A stretch of DNA of 64,000 bases from the NCBI GenBank assembly GCA_031291295.1, contig JARLJI010000116.1, positions 286,190 through 350,189 on the forward strand, read 5' to 3'. The notes below the pieces were generated by a model. It ran no database searches. It was given only the letters and a program-made list of their open reading frames with translations, and had not been told where the DNA came from. Below, piece after piece: positions 60,434-64,000 of the stretch. Each line of letters opens with the position of its first letter. The first letter of the stretch is position 1. The DNA comes from Rhodoferax sp. (lineage in GTDB: Bacteria; Pseudomonadota; Gammaproteobacteria; Burkholderiales; Burkholderiaceae_C). A program made the translations under genes and the position numbers.

Positions 60434-61669
60434 CTAAGGTCGGGACCTGATTCCGCCGGTACTGTGCGGTGTGATAGCGCCCGAGTGCTCGAGCGTCTCG
60501 ATCTCGTCCCGGCTGTAGCCAAGTTCGGCGAGGATTTCCTCGCTGTGCTCGCCATGCAAAGGCGGTGGCCGGCGCAGGGCGGTGCGTTCCCCGTCGAAGC
60601 GCAAGGGTTGGGCGACGCCCCGCAGCGTTCCCAAGGCGGGATGCACGTAGTCGAACGTCATGCCGCTGGCGCGGGTGTGGGGATGCTCGGAAAACTCGCC
60701 CAGCGTGTGCAGGGGCGAGCTCGGGATGCCGGCCTGATCTAACTCGCGCAACCAGACGTCGCGCGGTCGGGTGGCCAGAGCTGCAGACACCAAGGCGACA
60801 GTGTTCTCGCGGTGAAGGACCCGGTCAGCATTGGTGCGATAGCTTGGATCGTCTGCGACATGGTTTAAGCCGGCTAGGACGCAGAAACGCTTCCAGAGCG
60901 AATCGTTGGCCACGCCCAAGATCAAAGGCTTGTCCGCGGTGTCGAACACCTGGTAAGGGCAAAGCGACTCATGGCCCGACCCCGGCTTCTCCGGCTCGGT
61001 TCCCCGCTCCCAGAAGCTTTGGAGGAAATAGCCAAGGAATCCCGTGGCCGTGTCAAAGAGCGAGGCTTCGACGATGCCGCCCTGGCCGGTACGCTCTCGT
61101 CGGTAGAGCGCCGCCAGGATTCCAATGAGGGCATGCAGGCCGGTGGCTTGATCCACTGGCGAGAACGGGCTGCGGACCGGTGGGCCGTTGCGTTCGCCGG
61201 TGATGGACAGCATGCCCGTGAAGGATTGCAGAATCACGTCGTAACCCTTGCCGTTGCGCATAGGGCCGACGCTGCCGAAACCAGAGATGTCGCAACAGAT
61301 CAGGCGCGGGTTGCAGGTCCGCAATGTCGCGGCATCGACGCCGAGCCGCTCCGCGACCCCGGGGCCGAAGCTCGCGATGGCGATGTCCGCCCACTTGGCC
61401 AGCCGGTAGACCACACCTCGGCCTTGCTCACTGTTCAGGTCCAGGGCCAGGCTTCGCTTGTTGCGGTTGGCGCTGATGAAGACGGCCCCTGTCCTGTCCT
61501 GGCCGGCTTCGCGGAAGGGCGGCCAGTGCCGCGTTTCATCGCCCTGGCCGGGCGTTTCGACCTTAATGACGTCCGCTCCCATGTCGCCCAGGTACTGTGC
61601 ACACAATGGGCCGGCCAGCACCTTGGAAAGATCCAGGACGCGAAGCCCAGGCAGGGGTAATGCACTCAT
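60434..61669 (-). CDS. CaiB/BaiF family III CoA-transferase
   Basis: 'LPGLRVLDLSKVLAGPLCAQYLGDMGADVIKVETPGQGDETRHWPPF', 'NRNKRSLALDLNSEQGRGVVYRLAKWADIAIASFGPGV'. Confidence 0.93.
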   Translation of the reverse strand: MSALPLPGLRVLDLSKVLAGPLCAQYLGDMGADVIKVETPGQGDETRHWPPFREAGQDRTGAVFISANRNKRSLALDLNSEQGRGVVYRLAKWADIAIASFGPGVAERLGVDAATLRTCNPRLICCDISGFGSVGPMRNGKGYDVILQSFTGMLSITGERNGPPVRSPFSPVDQATGLHALIGILAALYRRERTGQGGIVEASLFDTATGFLGYFLQSFWERGTEPEKPGSGHESLCPYQVFDTADKPLILGVANDSLWKRFCVLAGLNHVADDPSYRTNADRVLHRENTVALVSAALATRPRDVWLRELDQAGIPSSPLHTLGEFSEHPHTRASGMTFDYVHPALGTLRGVAQPLRFDGERTALRRPPPLHGEHSEEILAELGYSRDEIETLEHSGAITPHSTGGIRSRP

Positions 61670-61714
61670 CGCTTCATCTCCTCATATTGCGGTCGCCGGC
61701 GTCGCCAGAAGGCG

Positions 61715-61758
61715 TTGACGCTCAGGATAGGATTGTAGTATAAAGTACAGTAGCATAC
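61715..61758 (+). promoter_or_regulatory. sigma70-like promoter (TTGACG-N18-TATAAA) followed immediately by GTACAGTAGCATAC
   Basis: TTGACG 61715-61720, TATAAA 61739-61744, operator-like 61745-61758. Confidence 0.6.
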
Positions 61759-61772
61759 GATAGGAGATTAAT

Positions 61773-62744
61773 ATGCGTTTGATGCATTTGTGGCGTTGTT
61801 CGGCGCTGGCCCTGGCGGCGTTCGCATGCGGCCCCTCGTTTTCTCAAGCGTGGCCCGCCAAGCCGGTGAAGATCGTCACAGCGTTCGGACCTGGGAGTGC
61901 CAGCGATATTGTCGCCAGGCTATTGGCCCGGGAGCTGCAGTCAGAATATGGCCAACCCTTCATCGTGGAAAACAAGCCAGGTGCATCAGGGATCATTGCG
62001 GCGGAATTCGTCGCCAGGTCGACTGCGGACGGGTACACGCTTCTCCTGACCACCAACACGATCAATTCGGGTAATCCGCATTTGTTCAAAAAGCTTCCCT
62101 ACGATCCAATCAGGGACTTCACGCCTGTGGCACGGGTTTGCAACTTCCTGTTCATTCTTGTAGTTTCGGCGGACCAGCCCATCAAGACCGTGTCGGACTT
62201 GGAGTCGTTCGCCAAAGCTCATCCGAACAAGGTGAGCTTTGCCTACGGCAATAGCACGGGCCAGGTTGCGGGGGCTGCGTTCAATGCGTTGGCGGGCCTG
62301 AACGCGTTGGCTGTTCCCTACAAGAGTACGCCACAGGCGTTGAGTGCGCTGGTGGGCGGTGAAGTGACCTATCTGTTCGTCGATTTAGCGTCAAGCCAAT
62401 CCTTGGAAAAGGCTGGGCGGGTGCGCGCTTTGGCGATCACGACCGAAAATAAAAGCCCACTCGCGCCAGAACTGCCTACGCTGGCCTCCAGTGCAGATCT
62501 GCCAGGCTTCGACCTCGCGGCGTGGGTTGGCGTTGTGGGCCCGGCAGCGCTACCCGGCGATATTACGAACAAGCTCAGTGCATCGATCAATCGCATCCTG
62601 AGGCGCAAAGAAGTGGTAGACAAGTTGACGTCTCTTGGTGCGGATGTTTCCCCCGGAACAGCTGCCGAGCTTCAGTCCTACATGAGCCGCCAATACGTTG
62701 TTTGGGGCGACAAGATCAAGGCCGCCGGCATCCAGCCGGAATAG
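61773..62744 (+). CDS. Bug/TctC-family tripartite tricarboxylate transporter substrate-binding protein
   Basis: Signal peptide then '[68 protein letters not shown]'. Confidence 0.94.
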
Positions 62745-62785: not shown

Positions 62786-64000
62786 ATGACCGACCTGTCC
62801 GCTGAATACAAGGCTCTTGCCAACTACCGCCCCACGCACAAGGTGCGCTTCGTCACGGCCGCGAGCCTGTTCGACGGGCACGACGCGGCCATCAACATCA
62901 TGCGGCGCATCCTGCAGGGCATGGGCGCCGAAGTCATCCACCTGGGCCACAACCGCAGCGTGGACGAGGTCGTGACCGCCGCGCTGCAGGAAGACGCGCA
63001 GGGCATCGCCATCAGCTCCTACCAGGGCGGTCACGTCGAGTACTTCAAGTACATGGTCGACCTGCTCAAAAGCCGTGGCGGCGAACACATCCAGGTCTTT
63101 GGCGGCGGCGGCGGCGTGATCGTGCCGCCCGAGATCCGCGAGCTGCAGGCCTATGGCGTGGCACGCATCTTCAGTCCCGAAGACGGCCAAAAGATGGGTC
63201 TGGCCGGCATGATCGGCGAGATGGTGATGCGCTGCGACAAGGACCTGAGCGGCTTCGCGCCCAGGGACATTCAGGCCATCCAGGGCCACGGCGAGATGGC
63301 CTGGCGCGCGCTGGCCCAGTTGATCACGGCGCTTGAAAACGACGGAGCGCCGGCGGCCGATAAAAGCCCCGACGCCAAATTGGCAGCGCTGGTCCAAACC
63401 CTGCGCACCCAGGCCGCGACGAAGAAGGTGCCCGTGCTCGGCATCACCGGCACCGGCGGCGCCGGCAAGTCATCGCTCACCGACGAGCTGATCCGGCGCC
63501 TGCGCCTCGACCAGAACGACAGCCTGCGCGTGGCGGTGATCTCAATCGACCCGTCACGGCGCAAGAGTGGCGGCGCGCTGCTGGGCGACCGCATTCGCAT
63601 GAATGCGATTGGTCCGTGGCGCAGGCCTTCACCCCTTCCCCCGCTGGGGGAAGGCAGGGATGGGGGCCGGCGTGCCACGGTGACCGCCAAAATGCCCCCA
63701 CCCCTGCCCTCCCCCAGCGGGGGAGGGAGTCAAGACAACGGCCAACGGGTATTTATGCGCAGCCTGGCCACGCGCGACTTCGGCTCCGAGATCAGCGCCG
63801 CGCTGCCCGACGTGATCGCCGCCTGCAAGGTGGCCGGTTTTGATTTGATCGTGGTGGAAACCTCGGGCATCGGCCAGGGCGACGCCGCCATCGTGCCGCA
63901 TGTGGACGTGCCCATGTACGTGATGACGCCCGAGTTCGGCGCCGCCAGCCAGCTGGAAAAAATCGACATGCTGGACTTCGCCGAGTTCGTGGCCATCAAC
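62786..64000 (+). CDS. icmF: fused isobutyryl-CoA mutase IcmF (B12-binding + MeaB-like G domain), 5' part, continues past window
   Basis: Open frame from ATG 62786 to window end; '[44 protein letters not shown]', P-loop '[22 protein letters not shown]', '[24 protein letters not shown]', '[22 protein letters not shown]'. Absent from the ORF track because it has no stop in the window. Confidence 0.92.
63632..63729. repeat. REPIN-like element: two inverted G/C-rich hairpin units inside icmF
   Basis: Left arm 63632-63666 and right arm 63695-63729 are inverted copies (31/35 identical); each contains a perfect 9-bp hairpin (CCTTCCCCC-GCT-GGGGGAAGG; CCCTCCCCC-AGC-GGGGGAGGG). Confidence 0.9.

What the first reader, a model, noticed from the sequence alone, without database searches (positions are those of the whole stretch)
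63602..63756. REPIN-like double-hairpin palindrome inserted in frame inside the G-domain of IcmF
Seen: the icmF frame runs without a stop through two inverted REP-like units, giving '[62 protein letters not shown]'. From remembered IcmF/MeaB homologs the expected sequence is about 'RIRMNAI(N)HPN(V/I)FMRSLATR', so roughly 40 residues replace a short loop. Such repeats are normally intergenic; an in-frame insertion into an essential loop of a GTPase chaperone domain recalls Rickettsia palindromic elements that create protein segments. It could be a tolerated exaptation, an altered GTPase gating loop, or a silently inactivated icmF.
Basis: partly seen in the sequence, partly recalled or inferred. 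Interest (0 to 1): 0.72.

Follow-up and report, generated by a model that had tools for sequence, protein, structure and literature searches.

The report
Repeat elements recurrently inserted in enzyme loop
A small mobile palindromic DNA repeat has landed, in frame, inside a conserved vitamin-B12 enzyme gene, and comparison shows that unrelated repeats have done the same at this exact loop about twenty separate times in related bacteria, so repetitive DNA is repeatedly being turned into protein segments at tolerated spots.

Summary
An inverted pair of REP-like units (arms 63627-63667 and 63694-63734, 88% complementary) lies in frame in icmF, between the switch I segment and the next beta-strand of the G domain. 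It is multi-copy in its genome (12 matches or more). Of 135 distinct IcmF sequences examined, 28 carry one of three unrelated REP families there (one family in both orientations). A loop-free tree needs 27 changes; strongly supported branches alone force 21. No element of these families was found in 374 kb of icmF outside the loop. Most Burkholderiales relatives have a plain 16-residue loop. The genes look functional: dN/dS is 0.03-0.17, the frame is always open, and the used frame encodes neutral, low-hydrophobicity peptide. AlphaFold shows the insert as disordered on an intact IcmF fold. PurL and MoeA have loops of the same kind. Most likely these are tolerated insertions at permissive surface loops, not a broken gene. 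In-frame palindromic elements are known (Rickettsia RPEs, intragenic REPs). What is new is the convergence of unrelated families on one site, which bears on the hotspot-versus-common-origin question left open for Rickettsia.

The parts
62786..64000 (+). icmF (isobutyryl-CoA mutase fused), N-terminal B12-binding domain and G domain; open at the window/contig end
   Evidence: Pfam PF02310 and PF03308; phmmer to 4xc6 IcmF E 9e-157; Foldseek to 4xc6/5cjv E about 1e-41
63440..63475 (+). P-loop [12 protein letters not shown] (residues 219-230)
   Evidence: invariant columns of the alignment
63548..63598 (+). switch I equivalent [17 protein letters not shown] (residues 255-271; MeaB 92-108)
   Evidence: alignment; MeaB numbering from PMC10481361
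63593..63754 (+). hypervariable loop segment IRMNAI...RVF, 54 residues here
   Evidence: 12-77 residues in 135 orthologs
63627..63734 (+). REPIN-like element (family A), read in frame as residues ~281-316
   Evidence: inverted repeat, repeat copies, fold z -6.7; pLDDT < 50 over nearly all of residues 282-314
63627..63667 (+). left REP unit (arm)
63668..63693 (+). spacer between the two REP units
63694..63734 (+). right REP unit (arm, inverted)
63755..63775 (+). conserved anchor MRSLATR after the loop

Best explanation
The segment is a REPIN-like mobile repeat inserted in frame into a surface loop of the IcmF G domain, just after switch I. SHOWN: the same loop, and no other place in icmF, has received unrelated REP families many times in this bacterial family; the reading frame is always kept; the host gene stays under purifying selection; the insert is modelled as a disordered extension of an otherwise normal fold. 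INFERRED: REPs land widely and mostly survive between genes. The few that land in this length-tolerant, probably solvent-exposed loop survive if they keep the frame and encode a non-sticky disordered peptide, and they are later eroded or lost. The element therefore works as a tolerated, recurrently renewed loop extension, not as a regulator or a knock-out.
For: 28 of 135 distinct IcmF sequences carry family A (6), B (8), C+ (7) or C- (7) in this loop; every one outscores 100 of 100 shuffles. Each family is multi-copy in most of the host genomes. The tree needs 27 changes; starred branches alone force A>=4, B>=7, C+>=6, C->=4; the labels are as scattered as random (27.4). Sisters with plain 16-residue loops exist (L080/L043, L077/L079) and sisters with different REPs (L162 B / L036 C+). 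0 REP matches in 374,448 bases of icmF outside the loop. dN/dS 0.03-0.17 in pairs with an insert-bearing member. Insert pLDDT below 50 with ordered flanks; fold matches IcmF. The used frame has mean net charge 0.04 against +4.4 and +5.8, and fewer bulky hydrophobics, in the other two frames, which are open in 21 and 14 of 28. PurL and MoeA loops show the same recurrence.
Against: The interdomain linker of IcmF (60-83 residues, apparently permissive) has no REP, so tolerance alone may not explain the preference. Frame and composition preferences could partly reflect how the loci were picked: the family surveys ranked one-piece alignments to an insert-bearing query first. No transposition enzyme was tied to any of the families. 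No expression or activity data.
Confidence: 0.74

Rival explanations
1. DNA-level target preference: a REP transposase recognises the sequence or structure of this loop's DNA, so the hotspot reflects insertion bias rather than survival.
For: Inserts concentrate in a few codons between PW and RVF; the C+ end often abuts the RVF codons directly; other permissive regions of icmF have none. RAYT-like proteins occur in all 17 genomes searched.
Against: Three unrelated REP families, one in both orientations, use the same loop, with left and right boundaries differing by several codons. The same families also enter purL, moeA and uvrD, whose sequences at the site are unrelated. No REP of families A-D lies within about 1.5 kb of the 8 RAYT-like genes examined.
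Confidence: 0.12
2. The inserts are adaptive: the REP-derived disordered loop tunes the G-protein to mutase or G-protein to G-protein contact next to switch I.
For: Position directly after the switch I arginine that makes an interchain salt bridge in MeaB (PMC10481361); composition differs from the unused frames.
Against: The insert labels are as scattered on the tree as random labels, and close relatives lack them, as expected for transient near-neutral insertions. PurL and MoeA show the same pattern in unrelated chemistry.
Confidence: 0.1
3. One ancient insertion that was repeatedly replaced or eroded in descendants.
For: At least one mid-length loop looks like an eroded REP (L131 significant); the window's genus has A in two members and 32-33-residue loops in three close sequences, compatible with one insertion followed by deletions.
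Against: Clean 16-residue loops in sisters of insert-bearing lineages; unrelated families in both orientations; at least 21 changes forced by starred branches, although losses count among these.
Confidence: 0.07
4. The window's icmF is a pseudogene or an assembly chimera.
For: The contig ends in the gene, a second complete icmF is in the same bin, and the bin has 5.55% contamination.
Against: Frame intact; dN/dS 0.07-0.14. A separate genome of the same genus, G102, has the same family at the same site in the same frame. A fragment at the end of contig C13 carries an intact C-terminal part of a second copy.
Confidence: 0.03

Closest known systems
Rickettsia palindromic elements (RPEs)
   Same: About 100-150 bp palindromes inserted in frame in conserved genes; at least one host protein (guanylate kinase) stays active (PMC2229807).
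   Different: RPE-bearing genes carry an insertion at the same locus in each rickettsial ortholog, and common origin was favoured over hotspots (PMC3767692). Here unrelated families in different lineages enter one loop, next to uninserted sisters, in betaproteobacteria.
Intragenic GTAG/CGTC REPs (Di Nocera et al. 2013, PMC3733652)
   Same: REP monomers or dimers in frame in uvrA, polA, dnaE2 and other genes of several species; location in flexible linkers or loops suggested.
   Different: The window's element shows no GTAG or CGTC tag. In the passages read, that paper does not report repeated independent insertion at one site, nor IcmF, PurL or MoeA; its supplementary lists were not read.
REPINs (Pseudomonas REP doublets mobilised by RAYTs)
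   Same: Inverted pair of short hairpins, several to many copies, a RAYT-like gene in the genome.
   Different: No RAYT flanked by the element was found; this copy is within a gene rather than extragenic.
IcmF of Cupriavidus metallidurans (PDB 4xc6)
   Same: Same N-terminal domains, conserved P-loop, switch I and MRSLATR anchor.
   Different: Its loop is 12 residues (IRMNAINHPNIF), without PW or insert.

Membership tests
REP/REPIN elements | short hairpin units, here an inverted pair | tested here: met
   41-nt arms, 88% complementary; fold z -6.7
REP/REPIN elements | multiple copies in the host genome | tested here: met
   12 matches at E <= 0.01 in G000, 7 in G102, 33 in G036, 28 in G279
REP/REPIN elements | mostly extragenic | tested here: inconclusive
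   by a codon-composition test, 39 of 40 family B copies in two genomes are outside genes, but 5 of 20 family A/C loci in G000 lie in gene-like frames
REP/REPIN elements | mobilising RAYT flanked by the repeat | tested here: not met
   RAYT-like gene on C207 (just over the cut-off), no A-D repeat within about 1.5 kb
GTAG/CGTC-tagged REP super-families | GTAG or CGTC tag | tested here: not met
   neither motif nor its complement occurs in 63627-63734 (read)
Rickettsia palindromic elements | in-frame insertion in a conserved gene | tested here: met
Rickettsia palindromic elements | RPE sequence families in Rickettsia | not tested
   no RPE sequence was compared; the host lineage differs
IcmF | B12-binding domain + MeaB-like G domain | tested here: met
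   Pfam, PDB, Foldseek
IcmF | C-terminal mutase domain | tested here: inconclusive
   beyond the contig end; a C-terminal fragment on C13 is probably its other end

The most novel reading that the evidence does not exclude
Certain loops of core enzymes (IcmF, PurL, MoeA) act as recurrent landing sites where unrelated REP families are repeatedly recruited as adaptive disordered linkers, in IcmF tuning the switch I/mutase contact, so that REP turnover is an ongoing source of functional protein segments in a whole bacterial family.
Probability: 0.12. Interest if true: 0.88.

Novelty: new variant of a known kind. Interest (0 to 1): 0.66.

Why it matters
For Rickettsia it was left open whether different palindromic elements in one gene mark an insertion hotspot or one diverged ancient insertion (PMC3767692). 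This loop gives an answerable case: unrelated repeat families, both orientations, many events, uninserted sisters, and one well-studied enzyme with solved structures. It offers natural replicates for how mobile DNA becomes protein, and a ready list of tolerated insertion points next to a GTPase switch.

Tried and rejected
Rfam scan of the region gave only sub-threshold microRNA-hairpin matches, expected for any strong hairpin, and was discarded. Idea that IcmF is unique: rejected after the PurL and MoeA surveys. Idea that the element is specific to this strain: rejected. RAYT association: looked for, not found adjacent. 'Essential loop': rejected by length variation. Pseudogene: rejected by dN/dS. 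The 77-residue loop of G043, the 40-residue loop of G277 and several 24-33-residue loops could not be assigned to families A-C; the 44-residue loop of G121 matches A only weakly and was not counted. Two calls with wrong frames failed.

Full report
OBSERVATION. The icmF frame starts at 62786 and stays open to the window end, through an inverted repeat with 41-nt arms at 63627-63667 and 63694-63734. The strand folds far better than its shuffles. The window ends at the end of contig C16 of a 265-contig assembly (98% complete, 5.55% contamination). The gene's N-terminal B12 and MeaB-like domains are clear.

THE ELEMENT IS A REPEAT. In its own genome it matches a near full-length copy (79%, inside purL) and about ten half-copies, some at 97%. 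With a related copy as query, 12 matches were found in G000, 7 in its congener G102, 33 in G036 and 28 in G279; 23 of the 36 genomes searched had none. Counts are lower bounds because the tool scores a limited number of candidates.

THE LOOP. I extracted the stretch between LLGDR and MRSLATR from 135 distinct IcmF sequences. It is 12 residues in Cupriavidus and in most taxa outside Burkholderiales, 16 in most Burkholderiales (IRMNAIxPWxxGxRVF), and up to 77. After it the protein has 817-824 residues in 71 of 72 complete cases. In MeaB numbering switch I is 92-108 (PMC10481361); the insertion follows the equivalent of R108 by a few residues.

DIFFERENT REPEATS IN ONE LOOP. Reading the DNA showed three families. 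A: CCCCTTCCCCCGCTGGGGGAAGG-type (window, L154, L063, L160, L168, L177). B: GTTCGCCCTGAGCCTGTCGAAGG-type (L162, L169, L171, L175, L176, L071, L074, L080). C: GGGCCGTCCCAAGG...GCCCCCTCGGGGGGCAGCG...GTGGGGAGCGTGGGGGC, as C+ (L032, L036, L037, L178, L180, L107, L135) and reversed as C- (L034, L164, L166, L035, L170, L179, L077). All 28 outscore 100 of 100 shuffles of themselves. B is multi-copy in all eight B genomes (7-48 matches), C in 13 of its 14 (7-30; one match in G084), A in four of its six. In the 401-genome family survey 261 genomes had a match, and 22 besides the window's genome matched the insert-bearing query in one piece; 20 of those 22 belong to families A-C.

INDEPENDENCE. On a tree built without the loop (135 rows, IQ-TREE, quick search), A needs 5 changes, B 8, C+ 7, C- 7; all states 27, about equal to the shuffled mean of 27.4. 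Starred branches alone force 4+7+6+4. Changes may be gains or losses. The window and L154 may share one insertion, since both carry family A in the same frame. Uninserted sisters (L043 for L080, L079 for L077) favour gains.

SPECIFICITY OF THE SITE. Scanning 374,448 bases of these icmF genes outside the loop for families A-D found nothing above a score of 33, while the 28 loop inserts score 38-210 against A-C. The variable B12-to-G linker is free of REPs.

FUNCTIONAL STATE. dN/dS outside the loop is 0.03-0.17 for close pairs with an insert-bearing member, 0.07 and 0.14 for the window against its nearest relatives. AlphaFold gives the insert pLDDT below 50 over nearly all of 282-314, between an ordered helix (268-274) and strand (322-328); overall pTM 0.83; the best PDB matches are IcmF structures. 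A 16-residue-loop ortholog gives the same arrangement of elements (pTM 0.87). The used frame encodes near-neutral peptide with 11% bulky hydrophobics; the other forward frames, open in 21 and 14 of 28 inserts, would be strongly basic (+4.4, +5.8) and more hydrophobic. In IcmF, B is read only as the VRPEPVEG or VRAEPVEA type and C+ only as AGPSQG..APSGGSE, although other frames are mostly open in genomic copies. Caution: the family surveys ranked one-piece alignments first; the genome contigs set, not chosen by loop, shows the same frames in its five REP cases.

GENERALITY. Of 60 other genomic loci inspected, most copies lie outside genes, but in-frame copies were seen in uvrD (G217) and, in the window's genome, in moeA, purL and three further gene-like frames. 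Gene names other than moeA (Pfam) rest on reading the sequence. Surveying about 100 genera, the purL loop before MPMxVLLGKPPKMHR carries A, B or C in at least nine cases, and the moeA loop before LFGLPGNPVA carries C in four. A further set of moeA loops resembles family D, a repeat with many copies in four of the 14 genomes searched; membership of those loops in D was judged by eye, not scored.

LITERATURE. In-frame palindromic elements are known in Rickettsia, and intragenic REPs in several species (PMC2229807, PMC3733652). For Rickettsia, hotspot versus common origin was discussed and common origin favoured (PMC3767692). I found no report of this in Comamonadaceae or IcmF in the open-access library, which misses most subscription journals.

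ASSESSMENT. The element is a new member of a known kind of insertion. Its recurrence at one loop by unrelated families is a new variant of that kind. Tolerance in a permissive loop with selection on frame and composition is the best reading. DNA targeting and adaptive use remain possible.

Noticed in passing
G000 C163:115061-118432 and C13:80379-81326: The bin holds a second, complete icmF (93% DNA identity before the loop, 97% after it) with the same context as congener G071; C13 ends with a 316-residue C-terminal icmF piece next to an IS66-like transposase remnant, probably the other end of the window's copy. Paralogue or second strain is undecided.
   Followed up: partly
L243 (G000 C22:68333): purL carries the closest full relative of the window's element in frame, in a loop before MPMNVLLGKPPKMHR that is also a recurrent REP site in other genera.
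   Followed up: partly
L234 (G000 C42:56402), L299: moeA carries a C-family REP in frame; G045 (L299) has two tandem copies, and many other genera have a possible family-D repeat at the same loop.
   Followed up: partly
L197 (G217): A B-family REP lies in frame inside a uvrD-type helicase.
   Followed up: no
L064 (G043): 77-residue IcmF loop not matching families A-C; possibly another repeat family.
   Followed up: no
window 60437-62744: CoA-transferase family III and a TctC-type receptor lie upstream of this icmF; the sequence upstream of the other copy and of G071's icmF does not match it.
   Followed up: partly
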